Of a stretch of DNA of 48,683 bases, positions 1,888 through 48,683 are shown piece after piece. Origin of the DNA: Rhodospirillales bacterium (GTDB lineage Bacteria; Pseudomonadota; Alphaproteobacteria; Acetobacterales; Acetobacteraceae); NCBI GenBank assembly GCA_025351925.1, contig JANXVC010000337.1, positions 1 through 48,683 of the forward strand, written 5' to 3'. The translations under genes were made by a program, and so were the position numbers. Position 1 is the stretch's first letter. Every line of letters begins with the position of its first letter. The notes beneath the pieces are model-generated. The model had not been told where the DNA came from and did not search any database. It worked only from the letters and a program-made list of their open reading frames with translations.

Positions 1888-2729
1888 TGCAGAGCCCGCT
1901 CCGCTGGCCGCTGCTGGCCTTCATGGTGCTGTTCCTCATCTTCCTGTATGCACCGCTTGGCGTGCTTGGCGTGCTCAGCTTCCAGTCGGGGCCGGAGGGC
2001 GGGCCGCAATTCCCCATCGTCGAATGGTCCACCTACTGGTATCGCCATCTGTTCGGCCAGGTGCCCCCGACCCGCGTCGCGCCGCTGCCGATCGGGCCGT
2101 CGCTGCTGCGCTCGCTGGCATTGGCCGGCATGACGATGGTGACCTCGACCGTGCTCGGCGTGCTCGCGGCCCAGGCGTTCCGCCGCCGCTTCCGCTTCTC
2201 CGGCGCAGTGTTTTACCTCATCGTGCTCGGCATGATCGTGCCCGGCGTGCTGGTCGGCCTGGGCATCGCGCTGCTCGCCAACGCGCTGGGGTTGGAACGC
2301 GCCTGGTGGGGCACCTCGTTTGTCGCGCACGTGCTCTACACGTTCCCCTTCGCCTTTCTCGTCATGCTGGCGATCTTCAACCGGTTCGACCGTTCGGTTG
2401 AGGAGGCCGCCTGGAGCCTCGGCGTCACGCCGCTCCGCACTTTCCGCACCATCACCCTGCCGCTGATTTTCCCCGGCGTGCTCAGCGCCATGCTGTTCGC
2501 CTTCACCCTCAGCTACGACGAGTTCTCCCGCACGCTGTTCACCACCGGCGGCGCGCAGACCCTGCCGCTGACCATCTACGGGACCTTCGCCGTCGAGATC
2601 CATCCCAACATCTTCGCCTTCGGCGTGCTGACGACGCTGTTCTCCTTCAGCCTGCTGACGGTTTACGGCATCCTGATGACGCTCAGCGTGCGCCGGGGCC
2701 GGCGCGTGGCGATGCAGGAGGGCATCTGA
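1887..2729 (+). CDS. ABC transporter permease, PotC-like
   Basis: Second permease of the first ABC set, 280 residues. The ATG at 1887 shares a base with the stop of the preceding permease; the longer reading from 1788 would overlap that gene. The protein opens with a membrane anchor (PLLAFMVLFLIFLYAPLGV) and carries the EAA loop (VEEAAWSLGVTPLRTFRTI) followed by LPLIFPGVLSA. A motif typical of PotC is the SYDEF stretch after the loop. It is expected to pair with the permease at 970 as a heterodimeric channel. The stop codon directly abuts the ATG of the downstream SDR gene, so transport and oxidoreductase genes are in one transcript. Confidence 0.93.
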   Translation: MQSPLRWPLLAFMVLFLIFLYAPLGVLGVLSFQSGPEGGPQFPIVEWSTYWYRHLFGQVPPTRVAPLPIGPSLLRSLALAGMTMVTSTVLGVLAAQAFRRRFRFSGAVFYLIVLGMIVPGVLVGLGIALLANALGLERAWWGTSFVAHVLYTFPFAFLVMLAIFNRFDRSVEEAAWSLGVTPLRTFRTITLPLIFPGVLSAMLFAFTLSYDEFSRTLFTTGGAQTLPLTIYGTFAVEIHPNIFAFGVLTTLFSFSLLTVYGILMTLSVRRGRRVAMQEGI

Positions 2730-3473
2730 ATGCGTGAGCTTGCCGAGCACAACGCGGTCATCACCGGCGCAGCAAGCGGCATCGGTCGGGCGATTGCGGC
2801 GCTTCTCGCCGGCGCCGGCGCGCAGGTGCTGATCGCCGACCTCGACGGCGCGCGGGCCGATGAGGCGGCGCACATGCTGCGTCAGTCCGGCGGCCGGGTC
2901 GCGGCTGTTGCCACGGACGTTTCGGACCCTGCGGACGTCGAGGCGATGTTTGCCACGGCCGAGCGGTCAGGATCGGTCACGCTGCTGGTCAATAACGCCG
3001 GCCATGTCCACCAATCGCCATTCGAGGCGCTGGAGATCGCCGACTTCGACCGCATGATCGCCGTGCATTTGCGCGGCAACTTCCTTTGCGCCCGACGCGC
3101 CCTCCCGCCCATGCTGGCGGCCAATGAAGGCGTCATCGTCAACATCGCCTCGCAGCTCGGGCAGATCGGCGGCGTCCAGCTCGCGCACTACGCCGCCGCC
3201 AAGGCCGGGATCATCGGCATGACCAAGTCGCTGGCGCGCGAGGTGAGCGGGCGCGGCGTGCGGGTGAACGCCGTGGCGCCGGGTCCGATCGACACCGAGC
3301 TCGTGCAGAACCTGTCGCCGGAGTGGCGCCGCGCCAAGCTCGCCGAGCTGCCGCTGGGCCGGTTCGGCACGCCGGAGGACGTTGCGGAGACGGTCGCCTT
3401 CCTCGCCTCGCCGGCTGCGCGGATCTATGTCGGCCAGACGCTCGGGCCGAATTCGGGAGACGTCATGCTGTGA
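2730..3473 (+). CDS. SDR-family oxidoreductase (first of a pair)
   Basis: Classical short-chain dehydrogenase/reductase of 247 residues, a soluble cytoplasmic NAD(P)-dependent enzyme. The Rossmann motif TGAASGIG is near residue 12, NNAG near residue 89, and the catalytic Ser and YxxxK lie in NIASQLG and HYAAAK. DLDG after the second strand suggests NAD preference (inference). The C-terminus has the GQTL...NSG pattern common to FabG-like SDRs. The ATG follows the permease stop with no gap, and the stop overlaps the GTG of a second SDR. Being inside an importer operon suggests it oxidises or reduces an imported alcohol, sugar acid or ring-derived intermediate; the substrate is not predictable. 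Confidence 0.93.
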   Translation: MRELAEHNAVITGAASGIGRAIAALLAGAGAQVLIADLDGARADEAAHMLRQSGGRVAAVATDVSDPADVEAMFATAERSGSVTLLVNNAGHVHQSPFEALEIADFDRMIAVHLRGNFLCARRALPPMLAANEGVIVNIASQLGQIGGVQLAHYAAAKAGIIGMTKSLAREVSGRGVRVNAVAPGPIDTELVQNLSPEWRRAKLAELPLGRFGTPEDVAETVAFLASPAARIYVGQTLGPNSGDVML

Positions 3474-4231
3474 GCAAACCCCCAAGCGTGCTGATCACCG
3501 GCGCCGGCATCGGCATCGGCCGCGCTACCGCGCACGCCTTCGCCCGCGCCGGCTATGCGGTGATGGTCACCGACGTGCTGGAGAACGAAGGCCGCGCTGT
3601 GGTTGCTTCCATCAAGGCATCGGGCGGCACTGCGGATTTCCGCACCGTCGATGTCACCAGCACCGCGGCGGTGGACCAGACGGTCGCCGACGCGGAGGCC
3701 ATCCACGGCCGGCTCGACTGCGTGGTCGCCAATGCCGGCATCGCCCACCGCGTGCCGCTGGATCAGATGTCCGACGCGAAATGGGACGAGACCATGGACA
3801 TCGACCTGAAGGGCGTCATGCGCGTGGTGCGCGCGGCGGCGCCGGGCATGGCGCGGCACGGCGTGGGCGCCGTTGTCGCGCTGTCCTCCATCATGGGCGT
3901 CGCCTATGGCTGGAGCGAGCATGCGCACTACTCGGCGGCGAAGGCCGGCGTGGTCGGGCTGGTGCGCGGCCTGGCGGTGGAGCTCGCATCCGGCGGCATC
4001 CGGGTCAACGGCATCGCCCCCGGCTACATCCGCACGGCGCAGGCACTGTCGCGCGAGCACTCGCTGGGTCCCGAGGGATTGGAGCAGGCTGCGTCGTTCA
4101 TCCCGATGGGCCGGGTCGGCGAGCCGGAGGACGTGGCCGACGTGGCGCTATTCCTCGCCTCCGGCGCCGCGCGCTACATTACCGGGCAGGTCATCGTGGT
4201 CGATGGCGGGCTGCTCGTTGGACGCTATTGA
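3470..4231 (+). CDS. SDR-family oxidoreductase (second of a pair)
   Basis: Second classical SDR, 253 residues from the GTG at 3470, which overlaps the stop of the preceding SDR (GTGA). The longer frame from 3323 would lie within that gene. Motifs are TGAGIGIG (cofactor), VANAG in place of the usual NNAG, a catalytic Ser in LSSIMG, YSAAK (Tyr/Lys pair) and the C-terminal GQVIVVDGG. It is clearly divergent from its neighbour, so this is a pair of different enzymes rather than a recent duplication. A 34-bp gap separates it from the Tat-exported binding protein downstream. Substrate unknown. Confidence 0.93.
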   Translation: MSKPPSVLITGAGIGIGRATAHAFARAGYAVMVTDVLENEGRAVVASIKASGGTADFRTVDVTSTAAVDQTVADAEAIHGRLDCVVANAGIAHRVPLDQMSDAKWDETMDIDLKGVMRVVRAAAPGMARHGVGAVVALSSIMGVAYGWSEHAHYSAAKAGVVGLVRGLAVELASGGIRVNGIAPGYIRTAQALSREHSLGPEGLEQAASFIPMGRVGEPEDVADVALFLASGAARYITGQVIVVDGGLLVGRY

Positions 4232-4265
4232 AGCTGCATTTTCCTCGACCTGAAGGATCGATTGC

Positions 4266-5492
4266 ATGAGCGCATTTTCACGCCGAGATTTCACCCGGGC
4301 CGGCGCCGCCACTGCCGCGTTGGCGCTCGGGGGCGGCACGCCGTTCCTCGCCTCCGGACGCGCCTGGGCGCAGGCGAAGTCGCTGGGCAGCGAGCAGTTG
4401 CGCACCATTGGCCTGTCCGTGACGGTGCAGGACCGCATTCTGGCCGAATTCAAGCAAGCCTCCAAGGTCGGCGGCACCAGCGGCAGCGCCGCGACCTTCC
4501 CGGACGCGCAGACCAAGATCCTCTCGGGATCGACCGATTTCGACTGCTGGGAGGCGATCGGCGAGCGGCTGCCGGCGGTGGTGCAAACCAACCGGATCAC
4601 GCCGATCCCGGTGGGTGCGATGAAGAACTGGACCTCGATCCGCGACACCTTCACCAAGCCCGATCCGAAATGGCCGGCCAGCGCGCAGATCGTCGGCCAG
4701 ATCTGGAAGGACCCCGGCCAGACGCAGCTTTGGCTGGTGCCAACGGTCTATAATTATGATTCCGTCGGCTATAACCCGGACGTGGTCAGCGCCGAGGAGG
4801 CGAATAGCTGGACCGCGATCTTCGACCGGAAGTGGCGCGGCCGGTCAGGCATCAACACCGATCCGCTGATCGCCATTGGCCAGGCGATCATGGCGATGAA
4901 CTCGCTCGGCTTGTCGGCGGTGACGAACCCCGGCAATCCGAGCGAGGCCGAGATCAACGAGGCGACGAAGTTCCTAATCTCGAAGAAAAAGGACGGCCAG
5001 TTCCGCGCCCTGTGGAACGATTTCGGCGAGCTGGTGAATCTGCTCGCGTCCGGCGAGATGGTGGTGTGCGACGCCTGGCAGCCGGCGGTCATGGCGGTAA
5101 AGGCGCAAGGCCACGCCTGCAAATATGCGGTGCCGAAGGAGGGCTACCGCGCCTGGTCGATCGGCGTCACCTCGATCACCGGCACGCCCAATCCGGAGGC
5201 GGTTGTCGCCTACGCCGACTATTGGCTCTCGGGTCAGCCCGGCATCACCGTCTCGGAACAGGGCTACTACTCGCCGACGACGACGATCAAGGAAGTGATG
5301 CCGGCGGCCAAGTATGCCTTCTGGTACGAGGGCAAGCCATGGTCCGGCCCGGCCGAGCGCGGCATCAAGGAGGGCGACCTGCGCGACGGCGGCTCGCTCG
5401 CGGAACGCGCGGCGCACGTCGCCTATTGGCACCAGTGGCCGGACGCCTATGACCACCTGACGCAGCGCTGGGACGAGTTCCTGAACGCCTGA
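4266..5492 (+). CDS. ABC transporter substrate-binding protein, Tat-exported, PotD-like
   Basis: Periplasmic solute-binding protein of 408 residues. The N-terminus carries a twin-arginine motif (SRRDFTR), an Ala/Gly-rich hydrophobic stretch and a cleavage-like site after SGRAWAQA, so it should be exported folded through Tat. The mature part resembles family 1/8 extracellular binding proteins of the polyamine/iron type (NYDSVGYNPD, then CDAWQPAV and ISVTSITGTPNPEA-like segments). GAAGGATC lies before the ATG. It sits between the two SDRs and an ATPase and is presumably the receptor for the permeases at 970 and 1887. The ligand is not deducible from sequence. Confidence 0.9.
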   Translation: MSAFSRRDFTRAGAATAALALGGGTPFLASGRAWAQAKSLGSEQLRTIGLSVTVQDRILAEFKQASKVGGTSGSAATFPDAQTKILSGSTDFDCWEAIGERLPAVVQTNRITPIPVGAMKNWTSIRDTFTKPDPKWPASAQIVGQIWKDPGQTQLWLVPTVYNYDSVGYNPDVVSAEEANSWTAIFDRKWRGRSGINTDPLIAIGQAIMAMNSLGLSAVTNPGNPSEAEINEATKFLISKKKDGQFRALWNDFGELVNLLASGEMVVCDAWQPAVMAVKAQGHACKYAVPKEGYRAWSIGVTSITGTPNPEAVVAYADYWLSGQPGITVSEQGYYSPTTTIKEVMPAAKYAFWYEGKPWSGPAERGIKEGDLRDGGSLAERAAHVAYWHQWPDAYDHLTQRWDEFLNA

Positions 5493-42257: not shown

Positions 42258-42896
42258 ATGGCATTAGACGATCAGGCAAACAGCCGGGAGCGATATCATC
42301 ACGGCAATCTTCGCGAGGCGCTGATCGAAGCGGCGCTTGCCATGATTGCCGAGCGTGGTTTGGCCGGGTTTGCAATCGCCGAGCTGGCGCGTGTCGTGGG
42401 CGTGAGTCCCGCTGCGCCATATCGCCATTTCCGTGATCGGAACGCCGTCATAGCCGAGGTCGCACGGCGAGGCTTCGAGTCGCTCGCGGCCGATCTGACG
42501 GCCGCCACTGCGGGGTGGCAAGCTGACCCATTGGGTGCGCTGGAGCGCGCTGCCCAGGCGCATGTTGCGTTCGCCGGGCGCGAGGCTGCGGTGTATGCCG
42601 CCATGTTCGACAGTGGATTTCCGTCCGGCGAGCATCCAGAACTGGTGGTCGCGCGCGACGCCGCCTTTGCCGTCCTGCGCCGCGCTGCCGACGCCGCCTG
42701 CGCCATGGGCCGCGCGCCCCGCCGACCGCCGCCGCTGATGGTAGCGCTCCATGTCTGGTCGTTGACCCATGGCATCGCGACGCTGTTCAAAGGTCACGAC
42801 GGTAAGAACCAGCTGATGATCCCCATGTCGGCGGAGGCATTGCTGGAGGCGGGGCTGCTCATTTACCTGCAATCGATCGGTCTGCCCGCCAGGTAA
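42258..42896 (+). CDS. TetR/AcrR-family transcriptional regulator
   Basis: Regulator of 212 residues. The N-terminal helix-turn-helix reads ALIEAALAMIAERGLAGFAI, then AELARVVGVSPAAPYRHFRD, a complete TetR DNA-binding domain (recognition helix near residues 47-57). The C-terminal part (VALHVWSLTHGIATLF) matches the WHG-type ligand domain found in a subgroup. It probably represses its own gene and one nearby. No efflux pump is next to it; the closest neighbours are the basic protein gene and a DUF2852-like gene, so its target is unclear. The ATG follows 13-15 bp after a dyad. Confidence 0.92.
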   Translation: MALDDQANSRERYHHGNLREALIEAALAMIAERGLAGFAIAELARVVGVSPAAPYRHFRDRNAVIAEVARRGFESLAADLTAATAGWQADPLGALERAAQAHVAFAGREAAVYAAMFDSGFPSGEHPELVVARDAAFAVLRRAADAACAMGRAPRRPPPLMVALHVWSLTHGIATLFKGHDGKNQLMIPMSAEALLEAGLLIYLQSIGLPAR

Positions 42897-43011
42897 GCGG
42901 GATTGCCAATCAGCTAGGACTGTGGAGTACACGGAAAGTTGATGTCTAGGCGATGGTACGATTGGGCAGTGAGAGAGTAAATGCCTCTCACATACAGAAG
43001 GTGAGGTTGCC

Positions 43012-43425
43012 GTGTTGCAAGCCAAATTAGACGAGTGGGGTAAGCCGGCTTGGCTATCGCTCCTGGTGCTCGCGTTTCTGGCGGGTTGGCCGCTCGGCCT
43101 TGCTGTCCTAGCCTATTTGGCCGGCAGCGGCCGGCTGCGGGCATGGCGCGCCGAAATGCCGGGGACTTGGTTCAATCTACGCGGCCCGCAGGATGGTCAG
43201 GCCTGGCAAGCGCGCGGGTTTGGGCCCCGCCGTGGTACTCCAAGCGGCAACCGCGCGTTCGACGAATATCGCAACGAGACGATGCGTCGTCTCGAGGAGG
43301 AGCAGCAGGAGTTCAAGGCGTTCCTGGACCGGCTGCGTCAGGCCCGCGATAAAGCCGAGTTCGACGAATTCATGGCCGAGCGCCGTCGTCGTTCGGACGC
43401 GCCTGAACAGCAAGCCAGCGCGTAA
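43012..43425 (+). CDS. DUF2852-like membrane protein
   Basis: Protein of 137 residues. GTG at 43012 has GAAGGTGAGG upstream. One or two hydrophobic segments near residues 14-40 (WLSLLVLAFLAGWPLGLAVL) are followed by a soluble part. The C-terminal block GNRAFDEYRNETMRRLEEEQ and FLDRLRQARDKAEFDEFMAE is the signature I associate with DUF2852 proteins of Alphaproteobacteria, and it forms a charged helix, perhaps a coiled coil. Function unknown. It stands alone. Confidence 0.85.
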   Translation: MLQAKLDEWGKPAWLSLLVLAFLAGWPLGLAVLAYLAGSGRLRAWRAEMPGTWFNLRGPQDGQAWQARGFGPRRGTPSGNRAFDEYRNETMRRLEEEQQEFKAFLDRLRQARDKAEFDEFMAERRRRSDAPEQQASA

Positions 43426-43757
43426 GGCGTCTAAACACCAGGTGATCGAGATCAATTTTCGTGACATTATCGACTCGTGCGGAGGAGAGAATTGGCTTTT
43501 CCGCACGGGTGGCTTTAAGAGATGCCGAGTCATATCTGCGCAGGGCTGAGACGCGCGCTTGGGTATCGTTAAATCGATCGATCCCTTCATGTGAACAATG
43601 TTACTCGCTAACGGAGGGCTCGAGTTTCTTGCCGATCCGTTTCGATCAGGACAAGTCTTAGCCCCGAATTTGATGTGATCGTCCGCGAAAGCTGACACGT
43701 ACTGTGGCTTTTTAGGCCCACGGTAATACGTGTTGGCTAGGTTTGGAGGAGATCACT
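43426..43757. other. 332-bp intergenic stretch with a hairpin
   Basis: No convincing gene. A frame at 43461-43661 (66 residues) has no ribosome site and no match known to me. The stretch includes the hairpin at 43695-43733 and ends with GGAGGAG, the ribosome site of the next gene. Its AT content is above the local average, as expected for a promoter region. Confidence 0.4.
43695..43733 (+). other. Long imperfect hairpin upstream of a secreted-protein gene
   Basis: ACACGTA (43695-43701) pairs with TACGTGT (43727-43733), and CTGTGG (43702-43707) with CCACGG (43718-43723) through one G-U pair; TAA is bulged. The loop is about 10 bases with five T. It lies 12 bp before the ribosome site at 43745-43751. 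With no T-run after the stem it is not a standard terminator; a leader structure or dyad operator is possible. Confidence 0.45.
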
Positions 43758-44273
43758 TTGAAGGCGTCGGCAAAAGTATCAATAACCGACTTGCGGCGGC
43801 ATTCGCCTGGTCTCGATCGTCATGCAAGCATCGTCGCACAGCCGGCCATCATACTTTCCGTCGCGCTGATTGGGGCGGTCGCCGCGTATAGTCCAGTTTG
43901 TGCTGCAGACATTGCGTCTGACGCCCCACTATCGTCTGACGCGCCTGTAAACCGCGCCGATCCGCGGTTGCCGGTTGGTGCTCCCGCCAGGATCGTCATT
44001 CGCTATTCCTTGGAGAACGCGGTCGCGCGGGCGCGGGCGACCGACCTCGCGCATGGCCTGAGCGAGCAGGGACTGGACATTGCCGACCTCGTCGCGTCAC
44101 CTGAACGAATTACCAACAGCACGGTCAGCTATTTTTACTTTGAAGATCGGCCCGGCGCCGAGATCGCAGCGCGCGGGCTTGGACCCGCATGGCGATCCGT
44201 TCAGCAACGTCTCCCTCTGCGCGAACCGTTCCCCCGACCCGGCGCGCTCGAACTCGCCGTGGCTGGGCCGTGA
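43758..44273 (+). CDS. Secreted or anchored protein with a LytR_C-like domain, function unknown
   Basis: Protein of 171 residues. TTG at 43758 is favoured because GGAGGAG (43745-43751) is 6 bases upstream. After about 25 residues comes a hydrophobic segment (PAIILSVALIGAVAAYSPVC) ending in an AADIAS-like cleavage site. The C-terminal 90 residues (RIVIRYSLENAVARARATDL, GLSEQGLDIADLV, STVSYFYFEDRPGAEIAARG) follow a beta-alpha-beta pattern like the LytR/CpsA C-terminal or SPOR-type domains that bind the cell wall. That likeness is by eye only. It precedes a Sel1-repeat secreted protein by about 150 bp. Confidence 0.65.
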   Translation: MKASAKVSITDLRRHSPGLDRHASIVAQPAIILSVALIGAVAAYSPVCAADIASDAPLSSDAPVNRADPRLPVGAPARIVIRYSLENAVARARATDLAHGLSEQGLDIADLVASPERITNSTVSYFYFEDRPGAEIAARGLGPAWRSVQQRLPLREPFPRPGALELAVAGP

Positions 44274-44421
44274 GAACGGATGTATTGAAAGAAATCAAGT
44301 GCTCGTATCATCTCCGGTTTGCGTTCTATTCACGGCATTGACTGTGCCAGGAGCCACTATGGGGCTCGCCAGAGAGCGAAACTACCGGGCTGAAACTAGC
44401 CGGCGATAGGACCAATGCATC

Positions 44422-45180
44422 GTGCGGTGGTTTGTTGCTCCGATCCTGATCGTGATGCTCGCTGGTGGCGCTCAGGCTGAAAGCCTGACGACGCGGGCTG
44501 AGGGCGGCGACCCGGTCGCCCAGTTTGAACTCGGGACGATGTATGACCTCGGGGATGGCAAGCCGCAGAATGCGCGGACGGCATTTAAGTGGTATCAGCA
44601 GGCCGCTGAAGCCGGGTTGCCGGACGCCGAGTTCAACGTCGCGGTCATGCTCGACAGTGGACGGGGCACGGCGCAAAACCTGGCTGCTGCGGCGGTTTGG
44701 TATGCACGCTCGGCAGCGCGAGGCAATCATCGTGCGCAGTACAATCTTGGGCTATTGTATGCTGCCGGCGAAGGTGTACCGCGTAATGCGGATCTCGCGA
44801 CATTCTGGTATCGCCAAGCTGCCGCTACGGTTCCAGTCGCGGAGCGCCGGCTTGCCGCATTGCGGGCCGGTGATCGCAAAGGGTCAACATCCGCTGCGGT
44901 ACTTGCCGTGCCGCGTGATCGGATAGTGACCGGGTCGGCGCCTATCGAGTTTGTTTGGACAGCGTCTGCCCAGCCAGAACTTGTCCATTTTCTTGTGGAG
45001 ATTCGCGCACTCGATGAGACAGGCTCGCGCGAAGTGTACTCCGAGTTCACCGATGGCTCAGCGATTGCTGCGCCCTTACGCGAGATACCAGGTAACTATG
45101 CTTGGCGGGTATTTACTTTGGCACGGATGGCTGCCCGGTATACGGCGAGCGACTGGGCACACTTCACTGTAGTGCAGTAA
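44422..45180 (+). CDS. Secreted Sel1-repeat (TPR-like) protein
   Basis: Protein of 252 residues, GTG start, with a Sec signal (VAPILIVMLAGGAQAES). Three Sel1-like repeats of 36 residues follow: DPVAQFELGTMYDLGDGKPQ, PDAEFNVAVMLDSGRGTAQN and HRAQYNLGLLYAAGEGVPRN, each continuing with AxxWYxxAA text. The C-terminal 90 residues (APIEFVWTASAQPELVHFLV, then GNYAWRVFTL) resemble a fibronectin/Ig-like beta domain. Sel1 repeats serve protein contacts at the cell surface. It may work with the wall-binding-type protein just upstream. A terminator follows. Confidence 0.88.
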   Translation: MRWFVAPILIVMLAGGAQAESLTTRAEGGDPVAQFELGTMYDLGDGKPQNARTAFKWYQQAAEAGLPDAEFNVAVMLDSGRGTAQNLAAAAVWYARSAARGNHRAQYNLGLLYAAGEGVPRNADLATFWYRQAAATVPVAERRLAALRAGDRKGSTSAAVLAVPRDRIVTGSAPIEFVWTASAQPELVHFLVEIRALDETGSREVYSEFTDGSAIAAPLREIPGNYAWRVFTLARMAARYTASDWAHFTVVQ

Positions 45181-45205
45181 TCCATTGGGCAATAATCAGT
45201 GAGAC

Positions 45206-45255
45206 GCCGCGGCAAACGACATGTTTGCTGCGGCGCCGTCGTCTAGAGCTTTTTT
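45206..45255 (+). terminator. Probable rho-independent terminator
   Basis: GCCGCGGCAAAC (45206-45217) and GTTTGCTGCGGC (45223-45234) pair over 12 bp with one G-U, around a GACAT loop. AGACG and CGTCT can extend the stem after a bulge. Six T follow at 45250-45255. It lies 25 bp after the Sel1 gene stop. Confidence 0.7.
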
Positions 45256-45349
45256 CAATCGAAGTGGATCGGAAAAGACCTCTAGCTATTTGTTGTATCG
45301 AGCAACTTTATCCAACCAAAAGAGCAGGTTGGTCGGATGTCGCTCTAAT

Positions 45350-45775
45350 CTACTGCTTGCCGTATTGATCGGCGATCCGGGCTTTGTCACGGTGACGGAC
45401 ATACGCGCCAGTCGCACAACCGGCGACGGCTCCGAGTAAGCCGCGGCCCGCGAGATGGCCGCCAGCAGCGCCCACTGCCCCATAGCGTAGGCAGCCGCCC
45501 CCTGGTTTTGGGACCTCACCATTCTGCTGCTGCTGATAGGTCTGCGAATAGCGTGGATCCTGCGGGCTGATCCGCCGCTGGTCCGGCATTGGCTGAATTT
45601 GATCGCCCTGGAAGGCAAAAGGATCAGCCGACGAGCCTTGCCCAGCAGTCGGTTGCGCGCCTCCCTGATTGTAGCTCGGTGACTTGGTGCCCTGCGCCCC
45701 GGCAACGCCAACGTTCAGGCAGAGGATAGTAAGCGACGTGAGAAACAGCTTTGATATCATAGTACGGTCTTTCAT
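45350..45775 (-). CDS. Secreted glycine-zipper protein
   Basis: Protein of 141 residues with a Sec signal (ISKLFLTSLTILCLNVGVAG); ATG at 45760 may be the true start. The middle is Gln, Pro and Ser rich and likely unfolded (QIQPMPDQRRISPQDPRYSQ). The C-terminal part has a glycine zipper (GAVGAAGGHLAGRGLLGAVA) followed by GCATGAYVRHRDK, as in small outer-membrane or 17-kDa-antigen-like proteins. A membrane-inserted role is likely; the exact function is unknown. It may form a small - strand group with the HPF-like gene upstream. Confidence 0.8.
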   Translation of the reverse strand: MKDRTMISKLFLTSLTILCLNVGVAGAQGTKSPSYNQGGAQPTAGQGSSADPFAFQGDQIQPMPDQRRISPQDPRYSQTYQQQQNGEVPKPGGGCLRYGAVGAAGGHLAGRGLLGAVAGCATGAYVRHRDKARIADQYGKQ

Positions 45776-45798
45776 AGCTGAGTAGAATGAACTTGGGT

Positions 45799-46122
45799 TT
45801 ATGCCTTGAGACCTTGTATCTGCCGCTCGGCGACGCGGAAAGCATCTCGTACGGCAGTGTAGGCGTCGGGATGTGAGCGATTATCCTTCTCGTGGTGCGG
45901 GTCATGGGAAATCGCGAGGTCCCGGCCGGGTAGTCCCAGCATAATACGGACGCTGACATGGCCATGCGGCTGGCTTTTGCCGCCGGACGCCTCGACCGTC
46001 ACTCGGCAAGACGTCAGGGTCTTGCAGTGCTGCTCCAGTCTATCGACGTGCGCGCGGATGTCCGCCTCCAGGGCAGCCGATCCCTGCAATCCATGAAAGG
46101 CAATCTCGAGCGGGCGATCCAT
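45799..46122 (-). CDS. HPF/RaiA-family ribosome-associated protein
   Basis: Protein of 107 residues. ATG at 46122 has AGAGG 6 bases upstream; ATG at 46137 is an alternative. The sequence follows the S30AE/HPF pattern: MDRPLEIAFHGLQGSAALEA, ADIRAHVDRLEQHCKTLTSC, a central strand (HGHVSVRIMLGLPGRDLAIS), then HPDAYTAVRDAFRVAERQIQ. Such proteins bind the decoding site of the small subunit and silence ribosomes in stationary phase. The single-domain form lacks the long C-terminal dimerisation part. It precedes the glycine-zipper gene by 23 bp. Confidence 0.82.
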   Translation of the reverse strand: MDRPLEIAFHGLQGSAALEADIRAHVDRLEQHCKTLTSCRVTVEASGGKSQPHGHVSVRIMLGLPGRDLAISHDPHHEKDNRSHPDAYTAVRDAFRVAERQIQGLKA

Positions 46123-46174
46123 ATGGGGCCTCTGCATGTCGTGGAAAGCAGCTAACGCCGCGGCAGCTGGAAGG

Positions 46175-46741
46175 TTACCGCGGTCGGACCGCGGCGATCC
46201 TTGGGTGGTGCGCCACAGTGGCGGGCAACTGGTGCAACGCCAACCCGGATTGGTTCCATACCTCTTGCAGCAATGGAGGGACCAAGGTGCCGGAACCCGC
46301 CCAGAACAGCAACAGCGCGACGACGAGCGGCTCAAAGGGCGAGCCGGTTCTACAGAGCGGCAATGCCCAGGTTCGGCGGAGCGGCCAGGCGAGCCGCAGC
46401 CCACCCGGAGTCAGCAGGTCTGCGGCGAGATGCGAGAGATAGCCGGCCGCCAAGGGATCCACGATCCATCTCGGCGCGCCGCCGCGCAGCAAGCCCCAGG
46501 TGCAGGCCGCTAGCGCCAGGGCCGAATGCGTCACTCCACGGTGCCCGAGGGCCGATGCGATGCCGGATGAAAACGGGCGCAGCCGCTGGCCGAGCCAAGA
46601 CTTCGGATGATCGATGTCAGGAAGCAGAGAGCCCAAGATAGCAAGGCTCAGGCACGCGGGGGTTGCGGCTGGAAGACCCAGGTGCGGAGCCACCACCAGC
46701 CAAGCCGCCACTCCAAGTGCTACGTGGGACCCCGCCATCAT
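46175..46741 (-). CDS. YdjM-like membrane-bound metal-dependent hydrolase
   Basis: Membrane protein of about 188 residues. ATG at 46741 (MMAGSHVALG) matches the usual family start; GTG at 46783 would add 14 residues. Family marks are GSHVALGVAAWL, GSLLPDIDHPKSWLGQRLRP, ALGHRGVTHS, AGYLSHLAADLLTPGG and RLAWPL; the His and Asp residues are the presumed metal site. YdjM of E. coli is an SOS-controlled inner-membrane protein of unclear activity; whether LexA controls this one is not visible. It is divergent from the surface-type repeat protein. Confidence 0.85.
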   Translation of the reverse strand: MMAGSHVALGVAAWLVVAPHLGLPAATPACLSLAILGSLLPDIDHPKSWLGQRLRPFSSGIASALGHRGVTHSALALAACTWGLLRGGAPRWIVDPLAAGYLSHLAADLLTPGGLRLAWPLRRTWALPLCRTGSPFEPLVVALLLFWAGSGTLVPPLLQEVWNQSGLALHQLPATVAHHPRIAAVRPR

Positions 46742-46811
46742 CGGCTTATGCGGCCTTCTTAAACTAAAGTCAGACACTTGCACCCGGAATACGCCGAAGG
46801 CAACCCGACAC

Positions 46812-46867
46812 GGTTAGACAAAAATCTAACCTAATCCCAGCGGCAAGCCTATTCGTTTTAACGAATA
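46812..46867. promoter_or_regulatory. Two perfect inverted repeats in a divergent promoter region
   Basis: GGTTAGA-CAAAAA-TCTAACC (46812-46831) and TATTCGTT-TT-AACGAATA (46850-46867) are perfect dyads of 7 and 8 bp arms. ATCTAAC recurs right after the second. They lie between the YdjM-like gene and the surface-type repeat protein. They may be operators, and the first could also form an RNA hairpin. Confidence 0.55.
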
Positions 46868-46941
46868 TCTAACTTGTTGAAGCTACTTTAGGTTGGGTTG
46901 CCAGCCGTAGGCATCGCCAAAATACCTGAGGTTGCGGATTG

Positions 46942-48567
46942 ATGACGGCGAAGACGTGGAACGGATCGGTCGGTGCGTTTGCATCCGGCGATAATTGGTT
47001 GCCGCAGGTTGCCCCGTTGTTTGGTGACACGGCCATCATCACGGCGGGTACGGTGGCCGCGGCAGGAGTGCTGCCGGGTTCCTTAGCGATCATTCTGAAC
47101 CCACCGGCCAACGCAAGCGCGAACCTGGTGCTGTCGGACGGGACGCTGCTGGCGTCCTCACGATTGGACATCAAGGGGCTCGCGACATTACGGCTGCGTG
47201 GCACCGTTATCAATCAGGGCGTGATCTCAGCGATTGGCAGCCCGGGTTTGGTGTCCATTCAGATTGGTGCGATGCAGGAGGGCGTCGCCGCCAATTTCAT
47301 CAACGCCGGGTCGATTGTGGTGAGCGACACGGCGGTTCAGATCGTGCCCGGCGGCAATTTGGGTGACCAACTGCAGAATGACGGCGTGATTTCGGTTCGC
47401 AGCTCGCGTGGCACGGCGCAGCTGGCCTACATAGCGGCAAGCATCATCGGCACGGGCACTGTGTTGCTGGGCGAGTCTGTCACGTTCGAGACTGCATCGG
47501 CGGTGGGCGCCGGGCAGAATTTCGTGTTTGAACACGGAAATGGCGGCGCCACGACGCTGCGGATGGGCGCTGGAACGCTGTTCCGTGGCGTGATCACTGG
47601 GTTCGGAACGGACGATACCATCCAAGTCACGAGCGGCAGATGGGACAAGGTCGCCTATGCGCCGACCGACGCAGACGGCGGTGTGTTGACGATGTCGCTG
47701 GGCGACGTCGTGGTGAAGGCAACGGTGTTCAAAGGGTCATACATGACCTCCAGCTTTCAGTTGCAGGAGTCGATCCCGTTCGGCAGCAGCCAGGCTGCTA
47801 CGACCATAACAATCAATGATCCGCTGTTCGACGCGGCCTTCTATCTTCGGCGCAACCCGGACGTGGTGGCGGCCAGGCTCGATGCCTACCAGCATTACAT
47901 GATCTATGGCTGGCAGGAGGGGCGCGACCCAAGCCTATTGTTCTCCGATAGCAAGTATCTGGCGGCGAACCCGGATGTGCAGGCGGCTGCGCTCAACCCC
48001 TTATATCACTACGAAACCTATGGTCGGGCGGAAGGACGCGCAGCATTTCCAGCTGATCGCGCGGTGGCAGCGGATCTGCTGATCGATCCCGGCTATTACG
48101 ATCCGCAACTCGGCGCGTCCCTCATTCCGGCTGGGATTGCTGGGCAGCAGCAGGCGGCCTGGAGCTATGGCACGACAGGCTGGCAGCAGGGGCTCAACCC
48201 GGACCCGCTGTTCGACACTAAGTATTACCTGACGCAGAACCCGGATGTCAGGGCGGCCGGTGTCGATCCGCTGAAGCACTATGAGCAGTATGGCTGGCAC
48301 GAGGGCCGCAATCCTAGTCTGCTATTTTCGAGCTACAAGTACTTGGCCGCGAACCTGGACGTGACGGCGGCCATGCTCAACCCGCTTTATCACTACCTAA
48401 CATACGGTCAAAACGAGGGGCGAACCGCATTTTTAGTTGGGAATGCAGCGGCGGCCGATCTGCTTGTCGATGCCGCTTTTTATGATAAGCAGCTTGGCGC
48501 GACCATCATCCCAACCGGTTTGGCAGCCCACCAACAAGCCGCCGCGGTTTCTGCTCAACCCGGGTAG
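46942..48567 (+). CDS. Surface-type repeat protein, 3' end apparently cut by an insertion sequence
   Basis: Protein of 541 residues from ATG 46942 (TTG at 46939 adjoins it). No signal peptide; the N-terminal 280 residues are Gly, Thr and Val rich and beta-helix-like (MTAKTWNGSVGAFASGDNWL, VINQGVISAIGS, FINAGSIVVSD), as in type I-secreted or autotransporter-like adhesins. From 47821 come repeats of the kind YLAANPDV...HYxxYGxxEGR. A 128-residue module (384 bp) at 47821-48204 recurs at 48205 on, with matching ADLLIDPGYYDPQLGASLIP and ADLLVDAAFYDKQLGATIIP. The second copy diverges at about 48543, and its last residues (VSAQPG) overlap the end of a transposase-like frame on the other strand. The protein probably lost its original C-terminus. 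Confidence 0.8.
   Translation: MTAKTWNGSVGAFASGDNWLPQVAPLFGDTAIITAGTVAAAGVLPGSLAIILNPPANASANLVLSDGTLLASSRLDIKGLATLRLRGTVINQGVISAIGSPGLVSIQIGAMQEGVAANFINAGSIVVSDTAVQIVPGGNLGDQLQNDGVISVRSSRGTAQLAYIAASIIGTGTVLLGESVTFETASAVGAGQNFVFEHGNGGATTLRMGAGTLFRGVITGFGTDDTIQVTSGRWDKVAYAPTDADGGVLTMSLGDVVVKATVFKGSYMTSSFQLQESIPFGSSQAATTITINDPLFDAAFYLRRNPDVVAARLDAYQHYMIYGWQEGRDPSLLFSDSKYLAANPDVQAAALNPLYHYETYGRAEGRAAFPADRAVAADLLIDPGYYDPQLGASLIPAGIAGQQQAAWSYGTTGWQQGLNPDPLFDTKYYLTQNPDVRAAGVDPLKHYEQYGWHEGRNPSLLFSSYKYLAANLDVTAAMLNPLYHYLTYGQNEGRTAFLVGNAAAADLLVDAAFYDKQLGATIIPTGLAAHQQAAAVSAQPG
47821..48546 (+). repeat. Tandem 384-bp protein-coding module, second copy incomplete
   Basis: Each module encodes two YLxxNPDVxAA...HYxxYGxxEGR units and one ADLLxDxxxYDxQLGAxxIP unit. 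Copy 1 is 47821-48204. Copy 2 begins at 48205 with the same PLFD text and ends about 40 bp short of the expected 48588. The repeats differ at many codons, so the duplication is not very recent. Confidence 0.75.
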
Positions 48568-48683
48568 GGAGTGGCCTGCCCGCGTAGGGTTTGCTGGATA
48601 GCCTGGTAGGCGCCCATGCCACGGCGTGCGGCGGTGCCGATGACGGAGCGCACGCCGGCGAACAGGTCAGCGCCCCACTTGGA
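48555..48683 (-). mobile_element. C-terminal end of a transposase, probably IS66-like (runs off right edge)
   Basis: Read on the - strand from the right edge to TGA at 48555-48557, 42 residues are open: SKWGADLFAGVRSVIGTAAR, then RGMGAYQAIQQTLRGQATPY and a terminal PG. The WGAxLxAxxRSVIxT pattern is typical of the C-terminus of IS66-type transposases. The frame is open across the edge, so the 5' part lies outside the window. The repeat-protein homology stops about 10 bp before this stop codon, which marks the probable element end. The IS family is a judgment by eye. Confidence 0.6.

What the first reader, a model, noticed from the sequence alone, without database searches (positions are those of the whole stretch)
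48500..48683. Surface-type protein truncated at the end of an insertion sequence
The second repeat module matches the first until about 48543. Ten bases later the - strand frame of a transposase C-terminus ends (TGA 48555-48557). The last residues VSAQPG therefore come from the element, not from the repeat protein. This would have removed further repeats or a secretion signal from the original protein.
Basis: partly seen in the sequence, partly recalled or inferred. Interest (0 to 1): 0.55.

Follow-up and report, generated by a model that had tools for sequence, protein, structure and literature searches.

The report
Adhesin-like repeat gene broken by IS
A common kind of jumping DNA element landed near the end of a bacterial gene for an adhesin-like repeat protein and cut off its last two repeats; the missing piece turns up on another contig, so the event is real but ordinary.

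Summary
Window 48547-48683 is the transposase-3' end of a high-copy IS66-family element (ISBst12-type, one transposase gene), inserted into a repeat-protein gene. The last six residues (VSAQPG) are read from the element. The rest of the gene lies on contig C93 of the same genome: other IS end, the same 8-bp target duplication (CCGCCGCG), then 92 in-frame residues with two more 38-aa repeats and the normal C-terminus. The empty-site frame is 627 aa; orthologs in two congeners are 626 and 628 aa and lack the element. Gene order runs window -> C93 as in one of these congeners. Of 38 right and 30 left flanks held, 17 pairs match by exactly 8 bp, none at 5-7 or 9-11 bp. The N-terminal domain of the ortholog's predicted model resembles Candida Awp1/Awp3b beta-helix adhesin domains, so 'surface-type' is plausible; loss of a secretion signal is unproven. 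The contig probably stops here because the element is a collapsed repeat. Ordinary IS inactivation. Side observation: the 38-aa repeat, shared with glycosyltransferases, matched no Pfam or NCBIfam model where scanned.

The parts
46942..48567 (+). Truncated ORF of the repeat protein (541 aa; 535 native codons plus VSAQPG from the element). The start may also be read at TTG 46939; orthologs favour ATG.
   Evidence: orthologs begin MATK[TL]WNG
46942..47811 (+). N-terminal domain (about 290 aa), predicted right-handed beta-helix, like Candida Awp1/Awp3b A-regions
   Evidence: ortholog model, (Z 18.4 and 18.3 at rmsd 3.2 and 3.6 A, 244 and 250 residues aligned); no Pfam match in the window protein
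47824..48048 (+). First pair of 38-aa repeat units
   Evidence: profile match; units at residues 296 and 334 counted from TTG 46939
48208..48432 (+). Second pair of 38-aa repeat units
   Evidence: profile match; units at residues 424 and 462 counted from TTG 46939
48433..48546 (+). Degenerate third unit of module 2, cut by the insertion after codon 535
48539..48546 (+). Target-site duplication CCGCCGCG; second copy on contig C93 (L090 reverse complement 138-145)
48547..48683 (-). Transposase-3' end of the IS66-family element, cut by the contig end; outermost bases GTTTCTGCTCA are the terminal inverted repeat
48555..48683 (-). C-terminal 42 residues of the IS66-type transposase, stop TGA at 48557-48555

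Best explanation
A copy of a high-copy IS66-family element (ISBst12-type: about 1.5 kb judged by sister copies, one transposase gene, imperfect inverted ends GTnTCTGCTCA, 8-bp target duplication) transposed into an adhesin-like repeat gene, with its transposase gene opposite to the gene. Shown: insertion after codon 535; the six-residue tail and stop supplied by the element; loss of 92 residues (two further 38-aa repeats and the conserved C-terminus); the remaining 3' fragment on contig C93; absence of the element from the same gene in two congeners. Inferred: the product is inactive or mislocalised, because it lacks the natural C-terminus. Inferred: the contig ends here because an assembler cannot pass a repeat of dozens of identical copies.
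For: Element end at 40 exact places. Other end plus CCGCCGCG plus frame continuation on C93. 17 of 38 right flanks pair one-to-one with 17 of 30 left flanks by exactly 8 bp, none at 5, 6, 7, 9, 10 or 11 bp, and none at the eight shifts tried between 1 and 20 bases. Empty-site frame of 627 aa aligns with orthologs of 626 and 628 aa over all but the last residue at 61% identity. Collinear patches of window 42532-48546 and then C93 on congener contig G003:C232. IS66 DDE domain in sister copies, complete ones of 1489 bp (C397) and 1469 bp (congener G003:C109).
Against: The interior of this exact copy is not assembled, so its length and the intactness of its transposase are inferred from sister copies. 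The join of window and C93 rests on duplication, frame and synteny, not on a read crossing the element. 21 of 38 right and 13 of 30 left flanks found no 8-bp partner (not every end was held), and the congener copy G003:C109 shows different 8-mers on its two sides (flanks printed). In congener G001 the gene order downstream of the ortholog is not that of C93 apart from short matches. No expression or phenotype data.
Confidence: 0.97

Rival explanations
1. The junction at 48546/48547 is an assembly chimera: the repeat gene is intact in the organism and its contig was joined wrongly to an IS end.
For: The contig ends 137 bases into a repeat; all 29 loci listed end 116-140 bases into it, and such ends are prone to misjoins.
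Against: A chimera would not give the same 8 bases on both sides, nor place the rest of the gene, in frame, beside the opposite IS end. The pairing recurs in this genome (17 pairs). No uninterrupted copy was among the 14 scored matches in the genome.
Confidence: 0.02
2. The gene ends naturally here and VSAQPG is its normal C-terminus, with the IS merely downstream.
For: The frame does stop within 21 bases of the junction.
Against: The two complete orthologs run on to 626 and 628 aa; the codons for the six residues lie wholly inside the repeated element.
Confidence: 0.005
3. The insertion is selected or reversible (phase variation of a surface protein) and not a passive by-product of an IS burst.
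For: A second family member, on contig C339, has a copy of the same element about 300 bp upstream of its start; [quoted passage not shown]
Against: Six family proteins searched against 73 IS-flank loci (both ends, some places twice) hit only these two insertions, and the comparison is post hoc; IS66 elements are not known to excise precisely (recalled); one genome only.
Confidence: 0.05

Closest known systems
ISDge4 of Deinococcus geothermalis (IS66 family, ISBst12 group; passages seen in PMC12898284)
   Same: Single transposase gene (449 aa there; open frames of 455-469 aa in sister copies here), imperfect ends GTGACTACTCAGCA / GTAACTGCTCAGCA against GTGTCTGCTCATCT / GTTTCTGCTCAACC here, 8-bp direct repeat, insertion inside a gene.
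   Different: Sequence not compared directly; there active transposition was observed under oxidative stress, here only its scars are seen, in dozens of copies.
[quoted passage not shown]
   Same: Same IS group affecting expression of a surface-protein gene.
   Different: Unrelated host and target protein; the paper itself was not read.
Awp1/Awp3b A-regions of Candida glabrata (passages seen in PMC8746771)
   Same: Predicted N-terminal fold of the target protein's ortholog; the paper reports that Awp1/Awp3 orthologs are mostly bacterial (9569 of 10290).
   Different: The fungal proteins are GPI-modified cell wall adhesins whose A-region also has an alpha-crystallin domain (not examined here); here the domain is followed by 38-aa repeats, and aligned identity is 13-18%.

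Membership tests
IS66 family, ISBst12 group | Transposase with the DDE_Tnp_IS66 domain | tested here: met
   PF03050 above cut-off in sister copies C397, C208, C362, whose transposase-end 137 bases are 88-89% identical to the window's; the window itself holds only the last 42 residues, so this is met by sister copies
IS66 family, ISBst12 group | Single ORF, no tnpA/tnpB (single ORF stated in PMC12898284; absence of tnpA/tnpB recalled) | tested here: met
   C397:1-1489 with a 469-aa transposase frame, congener copy of 1469 bp with a 464-aa frame. Interior of the exact window copy not assembled
IS66 family, ISBst12 group | 8-bp target-site duplication | tested here: met
   17 flank pairs at exactly 8 bp, the window/C93 pair among them; 21 right and 13 left flanks unpaired, and the congener copy on G003:C109 has no matching 8-mer
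IS66 family, ISBst12 group | Imperfect terminal inverted repeats like those of ISDge4 | tested here: met
   Left GTGTCTGCTCATCTC, right GTTTCTGCTCAACCC; compared by eye with ISDge4 ends quoted in PMC12898284
Awp1-like beta-helix adhesin | Right-handed beta-helix A-region | tested here: met
   Predicted model of ortholog L118: four Awp rows at Z 17.0-18.4 (best 3.2 A, 244 residues), best other row 12.8. Foldseek alone gave nothing at E<=0.001; mean pLDDT of the whole model 51.8, and the domain was not folded by itself
Awp1-like beta-helix adhesin | C-terminal alpha-crystallin domain of the A-region | not tested
   feature named in PMC8746771; not examined separately
Awp1-like beta-helix adhesin | Mediates adhesion / exposed on the cell surface | not testable with these tools
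   needs experiment
Type I (RTX) secreted protein | C-terminal secretion signal and dedicated ABC exporter | tested here: inconclusive
   No PrtD-type exporter above the NCBIfam cut-off in this genome (best 326.8 bits against 510.15); paralog C339 has an RTX match below cut-off (15.3 against 23 bits)

The most novel reading that the evidence does not exclude
A recent burst of this element is remodelling a paralogous family of beta-helix plus 38-aa-repeat surface proteins (one gene cut, one paralog with a copy about 300 bp upstream), and the 38-aa repeat is an unnamed helical module shared by glycosyltransferases and adhesin-like proteins, so that these surface proteins and the glycan machinery next to them (the downstream gene is a family 2 glycosyltransferase) work on the same polysaccharide.
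Probability: 0.08. Interest if true: 0.45.

Novelty: new member of a known kind. Interest (0 to 1): 0.13.

Why it matters
By itself it is routine IS inactivation of one gene. Two practical points follow. First, the truncated form of this gene should not be taken as its natural form. Second, exact 8-bp duplications allow contigs of such an IS-broken assembly to be joined in pairs without long reads (17 candidate joins here). The 38-aa repeat, found in 35 of 299 sampled genomes of the phylum and unmatched by Pfam or NCBIfam in the proteins scanned, may deserve a family of its own.

Tried and rejected
Looked for an uninterrupted second copy of the gene in the genome: none among 14 scored matches. 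Looked for Pfam domains in the window protein (none) and for Pfam and NCBIfam domains in L088, L093, L094 (none), L100 and L092 (weak matches). Looked for a solved relative by sequence: two weak matches (best 5nxk, E 0.011); none for the repeat. Folded the repeat region alone: mean pLDDT 42.9, too poor to search; it suggests short helices in each unit. Looked for a type I exporter of PrtD type: inconclusive. Rfam over 44000-48683: nothing at gathering score.

Papers: no paper in the held library contains NPDVAAAG, YGWREGR or NPDVAAA as a continuous string. The listings (10 of 17 shown; 8 of 30 shown) gave no title on this element in Acetobacteraceae; some searches were listings too. Passages were seen in PMC12898284, PMC8024623 and PMC8746771; no paper was read whole.

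Considered and dropped: chimera, natural C-terminus, phase variation (see rivals). The excess of insertions near this protein family (2) was not tested formally and is not claimed.

Full report
What was claimed. All of this is in the sequence: 48547-48567 reads VSAQPG-stop, and 48555-48557 is TGA on the minus strand.

The element. The exact 18-base end GTTTCTGCTCAACCCGGG occurs at 40 places; with up to three mismatches there are 64, against 12 for the pattern read backwards. In the 29 loci listed, of 30 held then, the flanks differ and the element starts at the base equivalent to 48547. Of 44 locus copies whose first 30 bases equal the window's (a requirement of the script; some places were fetched twice), 43 are identical over the length they share; the exception is L087 on C443, which carries two ends 46 bases apart. 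Copies 88-90% identical also exist in the genome. Complete sister copies are short (C397:1-1489; a congener copy of 1469 bp on G003:C109) and carry a transposase frame of 469 and 464 aa; PF03050 scores above its cut-off in C397, C208 and C362. A distant blastn against plasmids finds two Acidiphilium records, 82% over 61 bases, annotated as IS66 family transposase. The two ends of the element read inward GTGTCTGCTCATCTC and GTTTCTGCTCAACCC. Single gene, 8-bp duplication and end sequences match the ISBst12 group as described for ISDge4 in PMC12898284 (passages).

The missing half. Contig C93 ends in the opposite end of the same element. Outside it stand CCGCCGCG, the same eight bases that precede the element in the window (48539-48546), and then 92 codons in the right frame with two more repeats, ending HTAFAA-stop. 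Joining the flanks in a script, with the target counted once, gives a 627-aa frame that aligns, all but the last residue, with the orthologs in G003 (628 aa) and G001 (626 aa) at 61% identity, and with the contig-truncated ortholog in G002 (614 aa) at 64%. The junction follows codon 535 counted from ATG 46942. Gene order agrees with G003: patches of window 42532-48546 and then of C93 3403-346 lie collinear on G003:C232, where the next gene is a family 2 glycosyltransferase of 849 aa. In G001 the upstream order agrees but downstream of the gene only short matches to C93 were seen; in G002 the contig ends inside the gene.

Control for the duplication. The one reverse-complement match is what the self-complementary duplication AAATATTT would give (inference). 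Against this, 21 right and 13 left flanks stayed unpaired. Not every end was held: 30 of the 35 near-identical left ends in the capped list had loci, and ends of the diverged copies were not paired; some insertions may lack a duplication. The congener copy on G003:C109 has different 8-mers on its two sides (flanks printed). So the 8-bp duplication is a frequent mark of the element here, and the window/C93 pair is one clear case.

What was hit. The intact protein has an N-terminal domain of about 290 aa and a C-terminal array with a 128-aa period (unit, unit, degenerate unit), each full unit being 38 aa of the form YLxxNPDVxxAxxNPLxHYxxYGWxEGR. No Pfam model matches the window protein at E up to 1; no Pfam or NCBIfam model matches L088, L093 or L094 at E up to 0.1. 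The ortholog's model (mean pLDDT 51.8; ten-residue blocks 49-88 over residues 1-270) places the N-terminal domain with the A-regions of Candida glabrata Awp1 and Awp3b (Z 18.4, 3.2 A over 244 residues; Z 18.3, 3.6 A over 250 residues), ahead of the next unrelated rows at 12.8, which include a phage tailspike, the lyase RbmB and the Caulobacter S-layer protein RsaA; Foldseek alone gave no match at E 0.001 or better. PMC8746771 (passages) reports that most Awp1/Awp3 orthologs are bacterial and that the A-region joins a beta-helix to an alpha-crystallin fold; its authors found no glycan ligand on arrays. A surface or adhesive role is therefore reasonable but inferred.

Consequence. Shown: loss of two repeats and of the conserved C-terminus. 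Inferred: loss of function.

How recent and how unusual. Near-identical copies, one or two matches in each of the three congeners (14 candidates scored per genome) and orthologs without the element in two congeners point to a recent expansion in this lineage (inference). IS inactivation of a surface-protein gene is a well-known kind of event. Interest is low.

By-product. The 38-aa repeat profile finds 35 of 299 genomes sampled from the phylum. From 20 regions that I chose among the best matches, 25 open frames carried the repeat and 19 of them were scanned with Pfam: 8 have glycosyltransferase domains (one of these RgpF/WsaF), 1 a sub-threshold sulfotransferase match, 1 a nucleotidyltransferase, 1 AMP-binding and thioesterase domains, 1 RTX repeats and 7 nothing. 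This is not a random sample. That the repeat has no described family is limited to the libraries searched and one paper search by peptide words.

Source.

Noticed in passing
window 47824-48048 and 48208-48432; also L093, L094, L100, L153-L172: A 38-aa repeat (YLxxNPDVxxAxxNPLxHYxxYGWxEGR) with no Pfam or NCBIfam match of its own in the proteins scanned, found in 35 of 299 sampled genomes of the phylum and in 8 of 19 scanned proteins attached to glycosyltransferase domains.
   Followed up: partly
L092 (G000:C339) 1982-3418 and 3713: A paralog with the same N-terminal domain and a sub-threshold RTX match has a copy of the same IS about 300 bp upstream of its start; the 8-bp duplication AAATATTT pairs C339 with C96.
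   Followed up: partly
38 right flanks and 30 left flanks of the element in G000: Exact 8-bp duplications join 17 pairs of contig ends of this fragmented assembly across collapsed IS copies; only the window/C93 join was checked further.
   Followed up: partly
L097 (G000:C509) 1988-4896: A diverged IS66 copy appears split: its two ends lie about 2.9 kb apart and transposase matches lie in two pieces, as if another element had inserted into it.
   Followed up: no
G000:C443 79-96 and 125-142: Two identical IS ends in the same direction only 46 bases apart.
   Followed up: no
L100 (G000:C466) 1135-2937: A protein with the 38-aa repeats near its N-terminus and a below-cut-off glycosyltransferase group 1 match near its C-terminus.
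   Followed up: partly
L101 (G003:C109) 484-1952: A complete 1469-bp congener copy of the element whose two flanking 8-mers differ, so it has no visible target duplication.
   Followed up: no
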